The notes beneath the pieces were generated by a model that ran no database searches, was not told the origin of the DNA, and saw nothing but the letters and a program-made list of their open reading frames with translations. Source: Gammaproteobacteria bacterium (GTDB lineage Bacteria; Pseudomonadota; Gammaproteobacteria; Pseudomonadales; Pseudohongiellaceae). From it: a stretch of 54,747 bases of DNA. The position numbers and the translations under genes were made by a program. Within the stretch, counting starts at the first letter, position 1; every line of letters begins with the position of its first letter. Shown here piece by piece: positions 24,273 through 40,616 of this stretch. The DNA lies in NCBI GenBank assembly GCA_002723195.1, contig PBNR01000029.1, positions 12,870 through 67,616 of the forward strand, in the 5' to 3' direction.

Positions 24273-25355
24273 TTTTTTATCAGATGATATGGAAAAGTGA
24301 TGCTCGCTAACGCTCGCTCTTCATGGCTTCGCCATGAAATATGGATCTACGATCTGAAGAAGGAGTGAAGCAAAGCATTTTCAATAACTGGGTGTGACGT
24401 GACCCTGTAAACCCCCCCGTCAGGGGGGACTCCCCAAGAATGGGGAAGCAAAGGGGTTGAAAAGAAGAAAGAAGAAAAAGAAAACTGGAACAATGACTCC
24501 GTAAGGAGGCCAGAGAACAGTTTTTGAAAATATGGAAAAGTTTTTGAAAATATTGAAGCAATATCTGAAAAATTGGAACAAAATGACTATATATCTTCTA
24601 ACTTCTTGATATATCTACTAAATATCCACTGATATGACTAAATCTTTTACTACAGATACACAAACTCCCCCGATAGGGGGTAAGAGCAAGCTAACGCTTG
24701 CAGCTTCTCGGTACATTTCAATGTATCGTTACGGGAACGGGAGGTGCTTCACTCTCCCATAACGTAAGTCTTGTGTGTTCATCACAGTCAAAAGTGAAGA
24801 AATGAACAAAGGAAAACTCGTATGAGTAAGACGGATAGTTAGACAACAATCTTTATGTCTATAATCGTAGTCCCCCGTAGCTTGATCACTGACTTTTTAC
24901 GTCTGACAAGTTATTCGTTAGTTTGAAGGTGGAACAAAACTTCCGTAAGGAATCAACAAAAGACCTTCTTTTCCTTTCACAGAAAAGAGCTAAAGTGACA
25001 AAAAGTGTGAATTTTTTGGAACCCCAATCTCTATTCTAAAGCACAAAAACTGCGTAAATGAGCGTTATAGGTTTACCATAAAGCCTTGTCGTTTCCTCAT
25101 TATAATCTCACAAAACACGAAAAAATCGGTCGGAATAAGCAACGTTAGAGCCTGCAAACCACCGTGATTACTGGCTTTTTCATAAATATAAGAACCACAG
25201 TATCACAAGTAGAGTCACCTATACCAAGGGGGCTCTACTATTTTTACACTATAAACCCAACCAACATGAAAGTGCGTATTTTATCAGTAAATTTAGTATA
25301 TATACTATCTTGATATGCTATACCCCTACTGGTAATCTTATTACAGGGACTTGAT
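24273..25355. other. 1.08-kb stretch without genes
   Basis: No frame with a ribosome site is visible on either strand. It holds a CTCGCTAACGCTCG copy (24303), hairpins CCCCCC-GT(C)A-GGGGGG (~24411) and CCCCC-GATA-GGGGG (~24667), and a tandem repeat of TTTTTGAAAATAT (about 24520-24553). AT-rich blocks follow (24580-24660 and 25260-25310). Near its right end AGTAGAG/CTCTACT plus a T run (25208-25245) looks like a terminator with no gene before it. That suggests an untranslated RNA or a replication/control region. Confidence 0.5.
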
Positions 25356-25787
25356 ATGGATAACACTAAATGGGAACTACAATTCAGTACTCTCTCTGCA
25401 TGGGTAGAGAAGAAAGGCTATAGGGTTATTGTAAAGAACGCAGTAGCTGACTGTATTGTATTTCAAGACAAGGTTATATATATCAATATGAACTACACCC
25501 CAGAGAATAAATTCTATACACTACTACATGAGTGTGGACACTTACTCTTGGAGAATGGGAAGAAGGTGTTCTTAGATGAACACCCTATCTACCCCTCTGA
25601 TATTCTTGATGGTAGAATTGAAAGAAGCAAAGCATATAAAGTATGTTTACTCTCAGAGGAAACTAATGCATGGAGGAAAGGGTGGCGGCTGGCCCGGCGA
25701 CTTGAACTCTATGTAAACAAAGAGAAATATCACAAGTCTATGGTAGATTCTGTCTGGAGCTACGTAGAAGACATAACTAAGAAGTAA
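25356..25787 (+). CDS. ImmA/IrrE-like zinc metallopeptidase, 143 aa
   Basis: A small protease with the zinc motif HECGH (in 'YTLLHECGHLLLENG', residues ~49-63) and a second motif 'SEETNAWRKGW' (~100) that supplies the third ligand Glu in this family. ImmA/IrrE peptidases cleave DNA-binding repressors. In phages they can act on host regulators or defence repressors, but the substrate here is unknown. The start lies after CAGGGACTTGAT, a weak site. It is followed by a 54-aa basic protein and opens the rightward AT-rich region. Confidence 0.75.
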   Translation: MDNTKWELQFSTLSAWVEKKGYRVIVKNAVADCIVFQDKVIYINMNYTPENKFYTLLHECGHLLLENGKKVFLDEHPIYPSDILDGRIERSKAYKVCLLSEETNAWRKGWRLARRLELYVNKEKYHKSMVDSVWSYVEDITKK

Positions 25788-26030: not shown

Positions 26031-26357
26031 ATGAGTTCTTATTTCCTCATATATACTGACCCCTACAATGTAGTATATGGGTCTCCAACCAGTTTCTATC
26101 TCCGCTCCTACTCAAATACGACTCAAAGGAACATTGAAGATGCAGTAAGGTTTACATTCCCTTCTGCAGCTGTGATCTATGCTCCTCAAATAACTAAAAA
26201 ATTTGAAGACGAAGATAAGAAGCTGAAATCGAAAAATCGCGCGACCCCAAGGCTCATTGATGGAATATCAGTACTCAATGAAGAAGAGTGGTATACGCGT
26301 AATAAACATTCACAATATGTATCATATGGTGAGTGGCTGCTGAATGGCTTACTATAA
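26031..26357 (+). CDS. Hypothetical protein, 108 aa
   Basis: Start at the ATG at 26031; the upstream TTG in frame lacks a ribosome site. Tyr/Ser-rich N-terminal half ('MSSYFLIYTDPYNVVYGSP') and charged C-terminal half. Unknown. Confidence 0.65.
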   Translation: MSSYFLIYTDPYNVVYGSPTSFYLRSYSNTTQRNIEDAVRFTFPSAAVIYAPQITKKFEDEDKKLKSKNRATPRLIDGISVLNEEEWYTRNKHSQYVSYGEWLLNGLL

Positions 26358-26379
26358 GTCAAATAGCAACGGCACATAT

Positions 26380-26440
26380 CTCCCCCTTACGGGGGAGCCT
26401 CAAGGCTCGGCTTAGTCCTAAGACTAAGAGAGTCTTTTTT
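26380..26440 (+). terminator. Tandem hairpins with terminator tail
   Basis: First hairpin CTCCCCC-TTAC-GGGGGAG (26380-26397). Then CTTAGTC/GACTAAG (26411-26428) competes with GACT/AGTC directly before T6 (26422-26440), so two folds are mutually exclusive. Confidence 0.55.
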
Positions 26441-26457
26441 ATACAGGAGGAACTATT

Positions 26458-26967
26458 ATGAGTGCCAGAACAATTAGAAATGTAATTTACACAGCAGCTT
26501 TCATTGACTTACCTCAATGGGATGAATCTTCACCTATTGATATGAAACGTCTCCTGGATACTACTACAAGTATCCTCGGACCCAAAAATCAAAATCCCAC
26601 AGGGATCCTGAAGAATGTCTATTTGCACCACATGACAATAGCATTCCGACCAACAATCTTTGAATATAATCAGCTTGATTATGGCAAAGAAACAACTCTT
26701 TACCTGGTAGGTATTGCTGGAAACGAAAAGGCTCAAGCCTTTTTAGTTGAAACTGTACTACCGGTGAAAAATAAATACCCTCATATAACTATCTCTACAG
26801 CTGAAGGAGTATCACCTGCATACTCTAATCAGTTGTTTGATGAAGTAGAGTGCGTTCAACTCATGGATCCAATCGAACTAAAAGCACGTATCGGTTGGTT
26901 TGATGGACGCCAACAACAATATAACCGAATTATGACGGAGGTTGAGAGACATGTCAGTCAACGATAA
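26458..26967 (+). CDS. 2H phosphoesterase-like protein, 169 aa
   Basis: Two H-x-[TS] motifs mark the 2H phosphodiesterase fold: 'LHHMTIAFRP' (~residue 59) and 'YPHITISTAEG' (~109), the latter followed by 'PAYSN'. Members hydrolyse or form 2',3'- or 2'-5' phosphodiester bonds. They include LigT, the CPDase domain of tRNA ligases, and the phage anti-CBASS enzyme Acb1. The start follows AGGAGGAACTATT. Its neighbours form a four-gene overlapping operon. Whether it repairs RNA or degrades a signalling nucleotide cannot be told from sequence. Confidence 0.7.
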   Translation: MSARTIRNVIYTAAFIDLPQWDESSPIDMKRLLDTTTSILGPKNQNPTGILKNVYLHHMTIAFRPTIFEYNQLDYGKETTLYLVGIAGNEKAQAFLVETVLPVKNKYPHITISTAEGVSPAYSNQLFDEVECVQLMDPIELKARIGWFDGRQQQYNRIMTEVERHVSQR

Positions 26968-34700: not shown

Positions 34701-35052
<352 letters not shown>

Positions 35053-35568: not shown

Positions 35569-36567
35569 ATGCTAAAATCTGCTGATGTCGTAGCAGGCTT
35601 GGCTTGGGGAGATGAAGGAAAGGGTAAGATTACCTCTTATCTCGCTTCATCCGGCAAGTACAACTATGTCTGCCGTTGGGCTGGTGGCTCTAATGCTGGC
35701 CATACAGTCTACATTAATGAAAATAAATACAAGACACATGTAATCCCTTCAGGGGTATTCCACGGAATACCAAGCATTATAGGACCCTCATGTGTAATTA
35801 ATAAAACATCCCTCTACTCAGAGCTTGAGTATCTCCATGATAATGGATTTGACATACATTTGGTTAAAATATCACCTAGAGCACACATCGTTACTGATGA
35901 ACACATCCTCTTGGACAGGGAAAGGCTTGCTCCTGCCCTAGGTACAACTGGAAGTGGAATTGCACCTGCATATGCAGATAAAGCAGCACGGTGTGGTGTA
36001 CGAGCCGAAGATTATCTTCCAAAAAGTATGATATGGGATGAGAAACTCGAAGGAAACGTGCTCTGTGAAGGCGCACAAGGCGTCTGGTTGGATTTAGATT
36101 GGGGAAACTATCCTTATGTTACCTCAAGCACAACGCTCCCCTATGGGGCTTGTAGCTTGGGAATTCCGCCTCAAAAAATCAACCGTATATATGGAGTTGC
36201 CAAGATCTATGACACTAGATCTGGAACAGATCCAATATTTCCCGAATCTCTACTAGAAGATCAGATCTTATCAAGACTCGCTGATCTTGGAGAAGAAGTC
36301 GGTGTAACAACTGGACGAAGAAGAAAAGTACAATGGCTAAACCTGGATAAACTAATTCACTCTGTGAATATGACTGGAACAACAGATCTTATCATAAACA
36401 AATGTGATATTTTGGATAAGCTTGGTGTTTACAAAATCATATACAACGGAAGAGTGGCACAATTTAACTCACTCACAGATATGATTGGATTTGTGAAAGC
36501 AAGACTATCTGAGAGGTGTCATCTGTTAAAGAATAAGCTGTTCTCTTCTTCACCGTTAACCCTGTAG
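35569..36567 (+). CDS. purA: Adenylosuccinate synthetase family protein (PurA), 332 aa
   Basis: Makes adenylosuccinate (AMP branch) from IMP, GTP and Asp. Conserved blocks: 'GLAWGDEGKGKI' (P-loop-like with the catalytic Asp, ~15), 'GGSNAGHTVYI' (~40), 'GTTGSGIAPAYADKAARCG' (~125), 'EGAQGVWLDLDWGNYPYVTSS' in parts, and 'GVTTGRRRKVQWL'. It is about 100 residues shorter than cellular PurA and close to the length of phage PurZ and archaeal enzymes. PurZ of diaminopurine phages, as I recall, replaces the catalytic Asp. Here it is kept, which favours normal PurA chemistry. No DatZ or DpoZ is seen in the window. Confidence 0.88.
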   Translation: MLKSADVVAGLAWGDEGKGKITSYLASSGKYNYVCRWAGGSNAGHTVYINENKYKTHVIPSGVFHGIPSIIGPSCVINKTSLYSELEYLHDNGFDIHLVKISPRAHIVTDEHILLDRERLAPALGTTGSGIAPAYADKAARCGVRAEDYLPKSMIWDEKLEGNVLCEGAQGVWLDLDWGNYPYVTSSTTLPYGACSLGIPPQKINRIYGVAKIYDTRSGTDPIFPESLLEDQILSRLADLGEEVGVTTGRRRKVQWLNLDKLIHSVNMTGTTDLIINKCDILDKLGVYKIIYNGRVAQFNSLTDMIGFVKARLSERCHLLKNKLFSSSPLTL

Positions 36568-36647: not shown

Positions 36648-36725
36648 AGGCTGGTAGCTCAATTTGGTTAGAGCGCTTGTCTCATAAACAAGGGGTTACG
36701 GGTTCAAGTCCCGTCCAGCCTACCA
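36648..36725 (+). tRNA. tRNA with CAU anticodon (probable tRNA-Ile2; tRNA-Met possible)
   Basis: Full cloverleaf: acceptor AGGCUGG/CCAGCCU, D-arm GCUC..GAGC, anticodon stem CUUGU/ACAAG with loop CUCAUAA (CAU, A37, A38), T-arm ACGGG-UUCAAGU-CCCGU, encoded CCA. C4-G69 is present. A CAU anticodon fits elongator Met or Ile2; the adjacent tilS gene favours Ile2, which needs lysidine at C34 to read AUA. Confidence 0.93.
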
Positions 36726-36742
36726 TCTTACAAGGAGACATT

Positions 36743-37366
36743 GTGATTAAACTCCTAAACAAAGTACCAAAAAGAATTACAATAGCTGTATCTGGAGGGC
36801 CTGACAGTATGGCAGCTCTGGATTTTCTAACTAAAAGACGTGACGTGACTGCTGCATTCTTTCACCATGGAACTAAAGCCAGTGATAAGGGTGAAAAAGT
36901 AGTCACTAAATATTGTAATGAACGTGACGTGACGCTTGTCACTGAAAAAATTAGCTGCACGAGACGTGGCGGCGAATCTAGAGAAGAATTCTGGAGAAAT
37001 GCCAGATATGAATTCTTCGAAAAACTAAACGGACCTGTAATTACGTGTCACCACCTTGATGATGTCATCGAATGGTGGATTTTCACTAGTTTGCATGGTA
37101 ATCCCAGACTAATTCCTTATAAAAGAGACAAGTATATTAGACCATTTTTACTTAATCGAAAACAAACACTAATAAACTGGTGCAGGAGGAATGATGTCGA
37201 CTACATCACCGATTCAACTAATAGAAACGATCTTTATTCACGCGGTTATATTCGTAACCATATTATTCCTACCATAGGTAGAATTAATCCTGGTATACAT
37301 AAAACCATGAAAAAGAAAATTATAGAAGAATTTACACGAGAAGAAGGATACGACGCAGCTTTATAG
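36743..37366 (+). CDS. tilS: tRNA(Ile)-lysidine synthase TilS, compact, 207 aa
   Basis: Converts C34 of tRNA-Ile2 (CAU) to lysidine so that it reads AUA and is charged with Ile. Start GTG at 36743, chosen because AAGGAGAC lies just upstream and because any earlier start would run into the tRNA. PP-loop 'VSGGPDSMAA' (~16-25), 'FFHHGT', 'ESREEFWRNARYEFF', 'CHHLDDVIEWW' and 'RPFLLNRKQTLINWCRRNDVDYITDSTN...RGYIRNHIIP' in parts are TilS-specific. It keeps only the catalytic domain; bacterial enzymes are usually over 300 aa. It sits 17 bases after its probable substrate tRNA. Confidence 0.9.
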   Translation: MIKLLNKVPKRITIAVSGGPDSMAALDFLTKRRDVTAAFFHHGTKASDKGEKVVTKYCNERDVTLVTEKISCTRRGGESREEFWRNARYEFFEKLNGPVITCHHLDDVIEWWIFTSLHGNPRLIPYKRDKYIRPFLLNRKQTLINWCRRNDVDYITDSTNRNDLYSRGYIRNHIIPTIGRINPGIHKTMKKKIIEEFTREEGYDAAL

Positions 37367-37620: not shown

Positions 37621-37881
37621 ATGGGATATATAAAGGAATCATTCAACATAATGAAATTAATAGGAAATTTATGCTTACGTTGCACAGTCCTTGTTCTTGC
37701 AATATCAGGAGTCGTATTAGGAGCAGTATACTTTGCTTCAGACGACCCAAATACTGCAGGCACATATGTGCAAACTTCTATCGACAGAGCTATAAAAGCA
37801 AAAAATGATTTAGTAAAAGATGTACAAGAATCCGATATTCAAGCTGAATTCGATGCTGGAAGCTTACTAGATAACGATTAG
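37621..37881 (+). CDS. Single-span membrane protein, 86 aa
   Basis: Start at 37621, decided by ACAGGAGGGTTGT. A membrane helix at ~18-40 ('CTVLVLAISGVVLGAVYFA') is followed by a polar acidic helix ('TSIDRAIKAKNDLVKDVQES'). The 250 bases upstream (37367-37620) show no gene, only a GAGAATTCTTAAG-type palindrome. Unknown function. Confidence 0.65.
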   Translation: MGYIKESFNIMKLIGNLCLRCTVLVLAISGVVLGAVYFASDDPNTAGTYVQTSIDRAIKAKNDLVKDVQESDIQAEFDAGSLLDND

Positions 37882-37888
37882 TATATTA

Positions 37889-37911
37889 CGGAGACTTACG
37901 TCTCCGCTTTT
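37889..37911 (+). terminator. Hairpin, weak terminator
   Basis: CGGAGAC-TTAC-GTCTCCG followed by CTTTTAT. Confidence 0.55.
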
Positions 37912-38373
37912 ATGCTACTTTGTTTTTCTTGGTAGCTCCCACCTAGATAAAAATTTGCTTTGTAATGAAGCAAATATGTTACGTGTTATCTGTCTGTTCT
38001 TACCCCCTTAGAGCAGAGAAAACACGGGGACCATAGCAAACTTACCAAATTCATAGCTATGGATGGTCAGCTGGGTTGGTTGTAATGCGGCGGATCACGC
38101 GACACAGTGACGGGTAGGTGTAAGGCCTACAACCTATTCATGAATGTATTTACCCCTAGGTACTTGAAAAAGAAATTTTTTAAGGTATTATAGGGGTATA
38201 CCAATTTTAATCAGTGTATTGCATTGGTTAAGAGGCAATACTCGTGGCGACTTGCTTTTGCAAAGAGCGATATTGTCGTTTCCTGTATATTTATTCTGAA
38301 GGAAACATGCAGCAACTTATAAAACAATGAAGAAAAACTCAGGAGTTCTACATGAACGAAGAGTATAAATACT

Positions 38374-38502
38374 GAATATAAGGATACTAACAGCAAATTT
38401 TATTCTTACCACAATCAAGAACGTAGCTTAATCAGGTAAAGCGCTTAACTTCGGTTAAGAGATGTCGGTTCGAATCCGGTCGAAAATGTATCCTGGATAT
38501 TC
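38374..38502 (+). ncRNA. tRNA-like RNA, candidate Y RNA (YrlA-like)
   Basis: The core looks like a tRNA: U8-A9, D-arm GCUU-AAUCAGGUA-AAGC (38426-38442), and T-arm CGG-UUCGAAU-CCG with flanking G-U pairs (38464-38480). But the anticodon arm is a 6-bp stem CUUAAC/GUUAAG closed by a UUCG tetraloop (38444-38459), so it has no decoding loop, and no acceptor stem pairs. Instead the core is enclosed by AUUUU/AAAAU and then a 13-bp end stem: AGGAUAC/GUAUCCU and GAAUAU/AUAUUC with a small internal loop. A CTTTTTC run follows. Bacterial YrlA RNAs have this plan, a tRNA mimic on a closing stem, and lie beside Ro60-family genes. Alternative: a decayed tRNA. Confidence 0.55.
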
Positions 38503-38634
38503 TTATCCTTTTTCTCTGTATTAAAGGGAGCCAGCAGCAAACTATATAATCAACAAGCAATAGATTAAATGCTCCCTGAATGCTTACCAGCACCGGAGGT
38601 TCCGAGTGACGGCTTATTGATTCCAAGCTTCTAA

Positions 38635-38668
38635 TACTGTTATGCAAGCCCCCTAGGGGCTAACAGTA
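38635..38668 (+). repeat. Compound hairpin
   Basis: Outer stem TACTGTTA/TAACAGTA (8 bp, perfect) encloses GCCCC-CTA-GGGGC. No T run follows, so it is not an ordinary terminator. Confidence 0.55.
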
Positions 38669-38768
38669 GCCTCTGGCTTCATTCCCCAATCCCAACCGTA
38701 AGCGGGTCGCGCTAATGCCGGTGCACCTTTCTGACAAACGATCAATTATTTGATCACTCACAAATGAT

Positions 38769-38790
38769 AATGGATAGATTTATATCCATT
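38769..38790 (+). promoter_or_regulatory. Leader hairpin of the RRM gene
   Basis: AATGGATA/TATCCATT stem just before AAGGAAAATTAA and the ATG. It could be an RNA site for autoregulation; that is inference. Confidence 0.45.
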
Positions 38791-38810
38791 TAAACAATAA
38801 GGAAAATTAA

Positions 38811-39059
38811 ATGAACCTGTATATTGGAAACCTACCCTATAGCCTAACTGAGCAACAGCTCAGTGACCTATTCAGTGCCTTCGGTACCGTTGATAAGGTT
38901 AACATCATCAAGGACCGTGAAACTGGAAATTCAAAGGGCTTTGGATTTGTAGAAATGGCAGACAGTGATCAAGCAACTACTGCTATGAGTGAACTCAATG
39001 GCAATGCCGTTGAAGGTCGTGAGATTAAAATCAGCGAAGCTCGTCCACGAGCTTACTAA
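38811..39059 (+). CDS. RRM RNA-binding protein, 82 aa
   Basis: A single RNA recognition motif covering the whole protein: RNP2 'LYIGNL' (3-8) and RNP1 'KGFGFVEM' (~43-50) with aromatic residues in place, beta1-alpha1-beta2-beta3-alpha2-beta4 order, and a short basic end (EARPRAY). It resembles the small RRM proteins of cyanobacteria and other bacteria. Such proteins are rare in phages in my experience. It likely binds single-stranded RNA, perhaps the structured RNA encoded upstream. Followed 69 bases later by the DUF2828 gene. Confidence 0.9.
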   Translation: MNLYIGNLPYSLTEQQLSDLFSAFGTVDKVNIIKDRETGNSKGFGFVEMADSDQATTAMSELNGNAVEGREIKISEARPRAY

Positions 39060-39128
39060 AAATTTTTTCTCATAAGGGAAAGTCAACATTAAAACTGCCA
39101 AGAAATTGGCCTAACCCTGGAGTCTTTT

Positions 39129-40616
39129 ATGACATATACACCATATGGTCAAACGACCACTACTCTTCTGGGAGCGATGCAAACAGAAGACGAATTCACG
39201 CTTAACGGCTGTGTTACAAACAGCACTGCTGGCAATCCACTTGTAGACATGTTCTTTCAAATTGGATCTATGCGTGGTAAATCAAGACAACCTATAGTTG
39301 ATCTAATGACTGCAGCTTTTGCAGTAGATCAGCTAGACGCCATGAAGTTATTCTTCTGGTCCCGTGATGTACGGGGTGGAGCAGGAGAGAGGCAAAGTTT
39401 CAAGACTTTACTTGAATTCATGTCTCAAACTCCCGAATATCATAATGTTCTCAAGCACAATCTACCACTTATTCCAGTTTATGGAAGGTGGGATGATTTG
39501 TTGGTACTCTTTGATACACCTCTAGAGAACGACACGCTTGAGCTTATAGGAAAAGCTCTCACTAATAGAGAAGGTCTTTGTGCGAAGTGGATGCCTCGCG
39601 AAAAGAGCAGCAAGAAGGAAATTGCTCAAAAGATCAGAAAGTTCATGGGCCTTTCTCCAAGAAAGTACCGTAAACTATTGTCTGAAAGCACAAACGTTGT
39701 TGAGACAGCAATGTGTGCTAAAGACTGGTCTTCAATTTCTTACTCTGCAGTTCCTTCTATTGCAATGAAGAACTATAGAAATTGCTTTGAAAGACAAGAT
39801 ACATCCAGGTGGCACACCTATCTGACCGCATTGGAAAGTGGTGAAGAGAAAGTAAATGCATCTGCTATCTTTCCTCACGATATCGTCAAGTCTGTTCTAG
39901 GTAATCTCGATACAATTAGTTTCCAAGAAAAGCGATTGCTTAATCAGCAGTGGCTTGCCCTTCCAAATTATATGGAGGGGAATACGAAAAGGATTCTTCC
40001 TGTTGTTGATACATCTGGAAGCATGTATAGCGGTTATTTTGAGTCTACGACTCAATTAACACCAATTCATGTGTCCATTTCGCTTGGACTCTATATTGCT
40101 GAAAGAAATGAAGGCCCTTTTAAGGATCACTTCATGACCTTTAGTGAGCAACCAGTGATTCAAAAAGTAGTGGGATCTGATATTCAAGCAAAACTACTCT
40201 CCCTGAAAAATGCAGACTGGGGATATAATACCAATATCCAAGCTGTTTTCGACCGTATTCTTGATACAGCCATTAAATGGCAAGTCAGTGCAGAACAATT
40301 GCCGACAACAGTTCTTATCCTTTCGGATATGGAATTTGATCGGGCTGCTAATCCTAGCGACTCTGCATACCAGTCTATATCCCAGAAATGGGAAGATGCC
40401 GGATATGGCCAGGTTTTACCTGAAATTATTTTCTGGAACCTTGATGCTAAAAGCTCTAACTTTCCTGTAAAGTTTGACCAAAAAGGGACTGCTATGATCT
40501 CTGGGTTTTCCCCTTCGATCCTTAAGCAGGTACTTAATGGTAGCGATATTACGCCTCAAGGGATAATGAGAGCTACTATCGATTCTGATCGATATTCTAT
40601 CATTACACTTCCATAA
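39129..40616 (+). CDS. DUF2828 protein (TROVE-like + vWA), 495 aa
   Basis: The DUF2828 pattern is clear. The N-terminal HEAT/TROVE-like half has 'LNGCVTNSTAGNPLVDMFFQIGSMRG', 'AMKLFFWSRDVRGGAGERQSF', 'IPVYGRWDDLLVLF', 'CAKWMPREKSS' and 'ISYSAVPSIAMKNYRNCF' (in parts). The C-terminal vWA domain has MIDAS 'DTSGSM' (294-299), 'GLYIAERNEGPFKDHFMTFS', 'ILSDMEFD' and 'IIFWNLD'. This is the architecture of Ro60, the Y-RNA-binding ring protein. An RNA-binding or RNA quality-control role is inferred from that likeness and from the neighbouring RRM gene and tRNA-like RNA. Confidence 0.88.
   Translation: MTYTPYGQTTTTLLGAMQTEDEFTLNGCVTNSTAGNPLVDMFFQIGSMRGKSRQPIVDLMTAAFAVDQLDAMKLFFWSRDVRGGAGERQSFKTLLEFMSQTPEYHNVLKHNLPLIPVYGRWDDLLVLFDTPLENDTLELIGKALTNREGLCAKWMPREKSSKKEIAQKIRKFMGLSPRKYRKLLSESTNVVETAMCAKDWSSISYSAVPSIAMKNYRNCFERQDTSRWHTYLTALESGEEKVNASAIFPHDIVKSVLGNLDTISFQEKRLLNQQWLALPNYMEGNTKRILPVVDTSGSMYSGYFESTTQLTPIHVSISLGLYIAERNEGPFKDHFMTFSEQPVIQKVVGSDIQAKLLSLKNADWGYNTNIQAVFDRILDTAIKWQVSAEQLPTTVLILSDMEFDRAANPSDSAYQSISQKWEDAGYGQVLPEIIFWNLDAKSSNFPVKFDQKGTAMISGFSPSILKQVLNGSDITPQGIMRATIDSDRYSIITLP

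What the first reader, a model, noticed from the sequence alone, without database searches (positions are those of the whole stretch)
38374..40616. Candidate phage Y-RNA module: tRNA-like RNA, RRM protein and Ro60-like DUF2828
A tRNA mimic with good D- and T-arms, a UUCG-capped stem where an anticodon loop should be, and a 13-bp closing stem in place of an acceptor lies about 300 bases before an RRM gene and a TROVE-like/vWA gene. Bacterial YrlA RNAs have this shape and are encoded beside Ro60 (Rsr) genes. DUF2828 replacing Rsr and an added RRM protein would be a new version of this ribonucleoprotein.
Basis: partly seen in the sequence, partly recalled or inferred. Interest (0 to 1): 0.9.

Follow-up and report, generated by a model that had tools for sequence, protein, structure and literature searches.

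The report
Phage Y RNAs beside Ro60-like gene
Next to a viral gene for a ring-shaped RNA-holding protein lie small RNA genes, one shaped partly like a transfer RNA, that belong to a family seen beside the same gene in many bacterial viruses and that resembles an abundant RNA of slime moulds.

Summary
The tRNA-like RNA is real, and is one of two, probably three, related RNAs before the RRM gene. Its closing stem carries a signature (AG+5-nt stem, then NWWCAGCAA; partner strand + CTG) that recurs beside DUF2828 genes of tailed phages: 63 motif copies on the gene's strand, 2 on the other; 37 of 50 distinct copies have an exactly complementary partner, against a mean of 0.76 with permuted stems. 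A covariance model of compact units, trained without the tRNA-like element, finds it (31.9 bits, E 0.0013) and nothing in 100 control loci. The DUF2828 protein folds like Ro60/Rsr. So this is a Y-RNA/Ro60-type particle. It is not YrlA: YrlA is a circularly permuted tRNA, this is not, and the YrlA model does not match. In relatives the stem carries other bodies: compact loop, permuted tRNA, or a complete tRNA with the stem as an anticodon-arm hairpin. RRM is not a shared part (1 of 182 loci). The signature resembles Dictyostelium Class I RNAs, below Rfam's cut-off. Phage Ro proteins and Y RNAs were known; my searches found no print of the signature, topologies or amoeba link. Nothing was tested experimentally.

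The parts
38379..38498 (+). tRNA-like Y-type RNA unit: 5' stem AGGATAC (38381-38387), motif TAACAGCAA (38388-38396), D-arm, UUCG hairpin, T-arm, 3' stem GTATCCT (38488-38494) + GG
   Evidence: strict motif scan; covariance model R1 31.9 bits E 0.0013, not in its training set; Rfam tRNA 40.2 bits at 38422-38482
38520..38585 (+). compact Y-type RNA unit: AGGGAGC CAGCAGCAA ... GCTCCCT G
   Evidence: 7/7 Watson-Crick pairs; R1 46.5 bits (a training row); the only R1 hit listed at E<=1 in the 3.6 Mb own genome
38278..38315 (+). possible hairpin-form unit: GTTTCCT G ... AGGAAAC ATGCAGCAA (weaker)
   Evidence: 7/7 pairs in the relaxed scan; not met by the strict scan; no T arm found around it
38422..38482 (+). 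tRNA-like body inside the first unit (D-arm, UUCG-capped stem, T-arm), normal not permuted order
   Evidence: Rfam RF00005, model 6-65 of 71
39129..40616 (+). DUF2828 + DUF7788 (vWA) protein, Ro60-fold ring protein (PHROG 850)
   Evidence: Pfam and PHROGs; AlphaFold2 pLDDT 84.6, pTM 0.84; Foldseek top 8 all Ro60/Rsr/TROVE
38811..39059 (+). single-RRM protein, 82 aa (Rbp_regulator type); neighbour, not a conserved part of the module
   Evidence: PF00076 4e-26; NF058537 112.7 bits, cut-off 100; 1 of 182 loci

Best explanation
The window, part of a tailed-phage-like contig binned with a bacterial genome, encodes a Ro60-type ribonucleoprotein: a DUF2828 ring protein with a vWA/MIDAS domain and two or three small RNAs encoded just upstream of it. 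Shown by sequence: the RNAs share a covarying 7-bp closing stem followed on its 5' side by ~NWWCAGCAA, and this unit accompanies DUF2828 genes across phages. Inferred: the protein ring grips the stem and the motif, as Ro60 holds a Y RNA, while the body hanging from the stem is exchangeable. In the window one body is a tRNA mimic lacking acceptor end and anticodon, another a short loop. Most likely mechanism (inferred): the Y RNA gates the ring or tethers a nuclease or tRNA-handling protein to it, so that during infection the phage can sort, shelter or decay structured RNAs, especially host or phage tRNAs attacked in defence.
For: Strand and gene linkage: strict units 60 forward (43 of 101 viral loci), 0 reverse, 0.67 per shuffle; 38 of 42 units in 82 loci within 1 kb of the gene, 0 inside it, where 1-kb flanks are 153,710 of 920,685 bases. 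Stem test without selection on pairing: 47 of 63 motif copies (37 of 50 distinct) have an exact 5-bp+CT partner; permuted stems mean 0.755, maximum 3 in 200 runs; control loci 0 of 15. Model R1: 81 hits at E<=1 in 58 of 99 sources, 80 on the + strand; 14 of the 58 sources also gave training rows; 0 hits in 100 of the 120 control loci; 14 of 18 named phage records at E<=0.01, 3 of the 14 having given training rows. Ro60 fold; MIDAS D294, S296, S298 invariant in 34 sequences. Expression elsewhere: in Listeria phage cka15 three highly transcribed noncoding regions lie within 2 kb upstream of the Ro-like gene (PMC12282133); three units lie in that stretch (about 25218-25606).
Against: No RNA, binding or phenotype was measured for this window. 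41 of 99 sources gave no R1 hit at E<=1; many positive loci are close relatives, so counts are not independent. In the cka15 paper the most transcribed region (26236-26727) is not one of my units, and the text I saw gives no coordinates for the other two. In some phages the R1 hits lie far from the gene (Ochrobactrum OC, Munch) and LeBron has none. The own-genome R1 search listed only 38520-38585, not the tRNA-like unit (150 of 2931 candidates scored). The tRNA arms are weak by thermodynamics. The PDB sequence profile match to TROVE is only E 0.026.
Confidence: 0.8

Rival explanations
1. Decayed phage tRNA gene: the element is a tRNA remnant and the closing stem is chance.
For: The window carries other tRNA genes (36648, 41687, 47283); acceptor and anticodon are gone.
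Against: The stem plus motif is the shared, covarying part; R1, built without this element, finds it; a second unit without a tRNA body starts 30 nt on.
Confidence: 0.05
2. Authentic YrlA Y RNA beside Rsr.
For: D/T arms, end-to-end stem, Ro60-fold gene; some relatives match RF02553 below its cut-off (LeBron 39.8, L006 29.1 bits).
Against: Not permuted; no RF02553 match here; 0 of 25 records over the gathering score.
Confidence: 0.05
3. Cis-acting leader: the hairpins regulate the downstream RRM/DUF2828 mRNA (attenuator or autoregulatory site) rather than act as free RNAs.
For: Units lie 5' of the genes here; a hairpin followed by a T run comes right after the first unit (fold), although the terminator rule does not list it.
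Against: In 82 viral loci 35 of 42 strict units lie downstream of the gene; related units sit inside tRNAs with full acceptors and CCA or between tRNA genes.
Confidence: 0.1

Closest known systems
YrlA (Rfam RF02553), bacterial Y RNA beside Rsr
   Same: End-to-end stem, tRNA D/T mimicry, partner gene with Ro60 fold; permuted YrlA-like units occur in relatives (L006, L007, L215, L225; by eye Whirlwind)
   Different: Window element is not permuted, its stem sits at the acceptor side, it has the ACAGCA motif and no RF02553 match
Dictyostelium Class I RNA (Rfam RF01414)
   Same: AAG start, short covarying end stem, 11-nt motif ending ACAGCAA beside the 5' stem, 42-65 nt, CUG(U) end; RF01414 gives E<=0.01 in 10 of 23 phage records, and in 9 of those 10 the best place is one of these units
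   Different: All scores below gathering (best 27.5 vs 41.5 bits) and the search also rings at E<=1 in 7 of 14 control genomes; published direct partner is an RRM protein, Rnp1A; reported as unique to dictyostelids (PMC7919456, passages)
Ro60 / Rsr (TROVE) proteins incl. Thermus phage phiLo Ro60 (9l5y)
   Same: Whole-length fold match, vWA with MIDAS
   Different: 12-17% identity; Pfam DUF2828/DUF7788 rather than TROVE
Suggested Y RNAs of Listeria phage cka15 (PMC12282133)
   Same: Same Ro-like gene; authors proposed Y RNAs among abundant noncoding transcripts
   Different: No motif, structure or family was given in the sections and passages I saw

Membership tests
YrlA (RF02553) | covariance model over gathering score (69 bits) | tested here: not met
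   no match at this place with E<=5; not among own-genome hits
YrlA (RF02553) | circularly permuted tRNA domain (T arm before D arm) | tested here: not met
   D arm precedes T arm, Rfam tRNA alignment collinear 6-65; permutation of YrlA from PMC11472068 (passages) and order of the RF02553 alignment
YrlA (RF02553) | encoded beside a Ro60-fold protein | tested here: met
YrlA (RF02553) | end stem bound by Ro60/Rsr | not testable with these tools
   stem present; binding needs experiment
DUF2828-linked RNA family (model R1, this work) | AG-stem7, NWWCNGCAA, partner + G; model score above chance | tested here: met
   31.9 bits E 0.0013 for the tRNA-like unit; 0 hits in 100 control loci
Dictyostelium Class I RNA (RF01414) | model over gathering score | tested here: not met
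   0 of 23 relatives' records; no match in the window stretch at E<=5
Dictyostelium Class I RNA (RF01414) | motif positions 3 U, 6 C, 9 C, 10 A, 11 A beside the 5' stem | tested here: met
   window unit 1 ACUAACAGCAA has all five; unit 2 GCCAGCAGCAA lacks position 3 (sequence against PMC7919456 passages)
Dictyostelium Class I RNA (RF01414) | end CUGU | tested here: not met
   window units end CUGG and CUGA; P100 units end CUGU
Ro60/TROVE protein | Ro60 ring fold | tested here: met
   Foldseek top 8, TMq 0.44-0.58
Ro60/TROVE protein | match to Pfam TROVE | tested here: not met
   only DUF7788 and DUF2828 at E<=0.1
tRNA | acceptor stem and anticodon | tested here: not met
   Rfam match lacks both acceptor ends, UUCG loop in place of the anticodon loop; ARAGORN negative

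The most novel reading that the evidence does not exclude
A single ancient RNA family, defined by one protein-gripping stem with a UUACAGCAA motif, serves DUF2828/Ro60 ring proteins in phages and in eukaryotes: the abundant Class I RNAs of social amoebas would be its eukaryotic members, i.e. Y RNAs of a DUF2828 or TROVE protein. The stem has been moved around tRNA: as a hairpin in the anticodon arm of a complete tRNA, as the ends of a circularly permuted tRNA (YrlA), and, as in the window, in place of the acceptor. The anticodon-hairpin form is the missing non-permuted counterpart of YrlA and suggests how YrlA arose.
Probability: 0.4. Interest if true: 0.95.

Novelty: new variant of a known kind. 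Interest (0 to 1): 0.85.

Why it matters
It gives a sequence signature for the likely RNA partners of a protein family present in 682 of 50,697 phage records, in the rows I saw named mostly 'RNA-binding', vWA or hypothetical protein. It makes testable how phages use Ro60-type particles, offers a non-permuted layout that could explain the origin of the permuted tRNA mimic YrlA, and points to a possible identity for Dictyostelium Class I RNAs, which were reported to have no relatives outside social amoebas.

Tried and rejected
Rejected: plain YrlA (no RF02553 match, wrong order); tRNA pseudogene; RRM as module member. A collection pattern for UUCG-capped tRNA mimics was too broad, since ordinary tRNAs can fit it; its 120 stretches served as controls. 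Nucleotide searches found no close relative of the stretch: 5 phage records matched only 97 nt of the gene, and 2 of 58 genomes matched 38340-38530, one the window's own, the other over 59 nt of the tRNA body. A unit caller without closing rules lost specificity (viral family 141 forward, 45 reverse; bacterial 219 and 95; control 252 and 238) and was dropped. A two-row alignment of the window unit with L238 was useless. Pair counts on A4 (99.5% paired) are partly circular, because its rows were picked for pairing; one search is the fair test. Rows dropped before a count: L213, L215, L216 and L218 were not given to (99 of 103 sources given); L110-L129 were not given to (100 of 120); L250 and L271 were dropped from alignment A3; L216 (a near-copy of L213, other strand) was left out. 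The promoter scan of 37850-38850 was at chance (2 found, 2.8 expected), and the terminator rule listed only 37889-37906. An acceptor check with ranges cut too short gave wrong acceptors for L007 and L225 and was repeated.

Full report
WHAT IS THERE. Rfam finds a tRNA-like core at 38422-38482 (40.2 bits, model positions 6-65, so no acceptor ends); ARAGORN does not call it. It is closed by seven Watson-Crick pairs, AGGATAC with GTATCCT, followed on the 5' side by TAACAGCAA. The next genes are an 82-residue RRM protein and a DUF2828+DUF7788 protein, which belongs to PHROG 850.

THE CLUE. In a related viral contig (L006) the stretch before the same gene holds four units that share a closing stem, the text NTTCAGCA/TTACAGCA/GTTCCGCA after the 5' strand, and CTGTTGA at and after the 3' strand. 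One of the four is a permuted tRNA that Rfam's YrlA model matches weakly (29.1 bits, gathering 69). The window element has the same kind of signature. A strict scan gave 57 forward hits in 39 of 90 DUF2828 sources (window included) and 0 reverse; 120 control contigs of equal total length gave 4 forward and 5 reverse. A second version gave 60 forward in 43 of 101 viral loci, 0 reverse and 0.67 per shuffle; among 80 loci from bacterial genome assemblies (some probably phage or prophage) 17 forward in 11 loci and 2 reverse; in controls 3 and 3. Relaxed scanning shows two more window units: 38525-38577 (compact) and a hairpin form at 38278-38315. It gives 93 forward hits in 51 of 90 family sources but also 6 reverse, and 20 forward and 24 reverse in controls, so the hairpin unit is only likely.

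IS IT CHANCE? The fair test takes every AGN5NWWCAGCAA in 102 sources without asking for a stem: 63 on the gene strand, 2 on the other. Of the 63, 47 have an exact 5-bp partner ending in CT within 260 nt downstream; of 50 distinct copies 37 do, against a mean of 0.755 (maximum 3 in 200 runs) when stems are permuted among copies; in controls 0 of 15. On 29 compact units, picked for pairing and therefore partly circular, 5 of 7 pairs change on both sides and the other two never vary. The covariance model R1 from these gave 81 hits at E<=1 in 58 of 99 sources, 80 on the gene strand (14 of the 58 sources also gave training rows, and several others are near copies of those), and none in 100 of the 120 control contigs. 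The tRNA-like window unit, not in training although its neighbour 38520-38585 is, scores 31.9 bits (E 0.0013). In 18 named phage records 17 have a match at E<=0.5 and 14 at E<=0.01 (three of the 14 gave training rows); LeBron has none. In 80 bacterial-assembly loci there were 26 matches at E<=1, 24 on the gene strand, six of them training rows. Of 42 strict units in 82 viral loci, 38 lie within 1 kb of the gene and none inside it; 35 are downstream and 7 upstream.

THE PROTEIN. An AlphaFold2 model from 34 sequences (pLDDT 84.6, pTM 0.84) matches Ro60, Deinococcus Rsr and TROVE structures over its whole length as its eight best PDB hits (E 2e-7 to 2e-5, TMq 0.44-0.58, 12-17% identity), among them Ro60 of Thermus phage phiLo; the next listed hits are vWA-type domains, from E 0.003. 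By sequence the profile reaches TROVE proteins only at E 0.026, level with an unrelated ribosomal protein at 0.03. MIDAS residues D294, S296, S298 are invariant (that they form a MIDAS is recalled knowledge of vWA domains).

BODIES ON ONE STEM. (a) Compact loops: 51 of the 86 units called, whose rule is slightly looser and whose list includes some likely chance calls. (b) Permuted tRNA (T arm, acceptor hairpin, D arm): L006 from 913, L007 from 6103, L215 from 7362, L225 from 5115, and by eye Mycobacterium phage Whirlwind. (c) A tRNA in normal order with a full acceptor whose anticodon loop or arm holds the stem as a hairpin, its two strands in swapped order: Citrobacter phage Ci1 two, Cronobacter S13 one, Aeromonas Ah1 one, an Endomicrobium-binned contig one (acceptors 7 of 7 paired; tails GCCA, ATCA, ACCA, GCCA, AAAA), Aeromonas Ahp1 one (acceptor 7/7, tail GCAG). 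By eye only: a second in S13 (acceptor GGGGTGA/TCACCCC, tail GCCA, but its T stem needs a bulged U and the script did not confirm it) and two in a Clostridia contig (L239, 117 and 118 nt, Rfam tRNA 49.6 and 48.1 bits). Those in Ci1 (one), Ahp1 and S13 (one) are annotated tRNA-OTHER or tRNA-Pseudo. (d) The window form: tRNA body in normal order with the stem in place of the acceptor; one weaker second example, L238 3832-3925 (tRNA 20.9 bits, model 8-63, below gathering). (e) Larger bodies of about 150-230 nt of unknown fold. YrlA is known to be a circular permutation of tRNA (PMC11472068, passages); form (c) is the matching non-permuted layout.

SOCIAL AMOEBAE. Rfam's Dictyostelium Class I model was noticed because it hit L006 (25.4 bits, gathering 41.5). 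Searched in 23 phage records it gives E<=1 in 17 and E<=0.01 in 10; in 9 of those 10 the best place is one of these units, in the tenth (Lak) it is not (one search compared). None reaches gathering, and the same search rings at E<=1 in 7 of 14 control genomes. The published features (start AAG, short covarying end stem, 11-nt CCUUACAGCAA motif, 42-65 nt, end CUGU) are close to those of the compact phage units. The paper reports no Class I RNAs outside dictyostelids (one bacterium was searched), and one RRM protein, Rnp1A, that binds directly (PMC7919456, passages). Common descent and convergence cannot be told apart here. Whether dictyostelids have a DUF2828 or TROVE protein was not tested.

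EXPRESSION ELSEWHERE. In Listeria phage cka15, three noncoding regions within 2 kb upstream of the Ro-like gene are among the most transcribed, and the authors suggested Y RNAs as one explanation (PMC12282133: section 8, part 1 of the Discussion, and passages). That stretch holds three units (about 25218-25606) after a TTGACA/TATCAT box read by eye. The most transcribed region, 26236-26727, is not one of them, and coordinates of the other two were not in the text I saw.

THE RRM GENE. It matches a family of bacterial single-RRM regulators (NF058537 over cut-off). Only the window among 182 DUF2828 loci has one nearby by motif. That a Class I RNA binds an RRM protein makes a link conceivable but it is not supported here.

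PRIOR ART. Y RNAs in mycobacteriophages and YrlA in phages are mentioned in citing papers; phage TROVE proteins with a tRNA-like partner in cellular organisms are mentioned in PMC7824862 (passage). Searches 'class I RNA'+'Y RNA'+'Ro60' (0 papers), 'DUF2828' (4 plant papers), 'phage'+'tRNA-like'+'Ro60'+'anticodon' (2 papers), 'Y RNAs'+'phages'+'Rsr' (4 papers, 3 listed), 'Ro60'+'Thermus'+'phage' (1), 'YrlA'+'phage' (5) and 'TROVE'/'phage'/'noncoding RNA'/'Y RNA' (92 holding three, 15 listed) showed, in listings and the passages opened, no description of the signature, of form (c), or of the amoeba link. The library holds open-licence papers only; Chen 2014 and the Sim and Wolin reviews were not held, so parts may be in print there.

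MECHANISM. Shown: co-occurrence, structure signature, Ro60 fold. Inferred: binding of stem and motif by the ring; exchangeable bodies as gate or tether. In Deinococcus a Y RNA tethers Rsr to PNPase (PMC8058203, PMC7790460, passages; [quoted passage not shown] The window body lacks an anticodon and so fits a tether for elbow-binding tRNA enzymes, or a decoy, better than a decoding role; this is speculation.

Noticed in passing
window 34701-35051: Phage-borne tmRNA with tag GASDRLITQGQTPVQLAV.
   Followed up: no
window 36648-37366: A CAT-anticodon tRNA (called tRNA-Met) directly before a TilS lysidine-synthetase N-domain gene (TIGR02432 over cut-off); the tRNA may be tRNA-Ile2, TilS's substrate (recalled).
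   Followed up: partly
window 35569-36567: Short adenylosuccinate synthetase-like protein (332 aa); PurZ model 95.9 bits, below its cut-off 300, so not PurZ by that rule.
   Followed up: partly
window 37882-38275 and 38589-38729: Further apparently structured noncoding DNA seen by eye: GGTTGTA...TACAACC and GCACCGG...CCGGTGC closing stems; no Rfam family there at E<=5.
   Followed up: no
L216 3237-3728 (OR088597 26236-26727): About 490-nt region of Listeria phage cka15 reported as most transcribed; present in P100 too; no motif unit found in it.
   Followed up: no
L304 3739-3933, L231 3445-3633, L233 1387-1600, L152 7437-7667, L199 7883-8114: Units with large 180-230-nt bodies of unknown fold.
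   Followed up: no
L213 7732-9015 and 10575-11458: Annotated tRNA splicing ligase and RNA ligase genes near the Ro-like gene in Listeria phage P100; RNA ligase genes also lie just before it in GAP32 and Munch.
   Followed up: no
plasmid records NZ_CP076118, NZ_CP106792, CP009417, OY725878: DUF2828 relatives on 4 of 72,556 plasmid records; two Bacillus records (162 and 166 kb) are about the size of the Bacillus phages.
   Followed up: no
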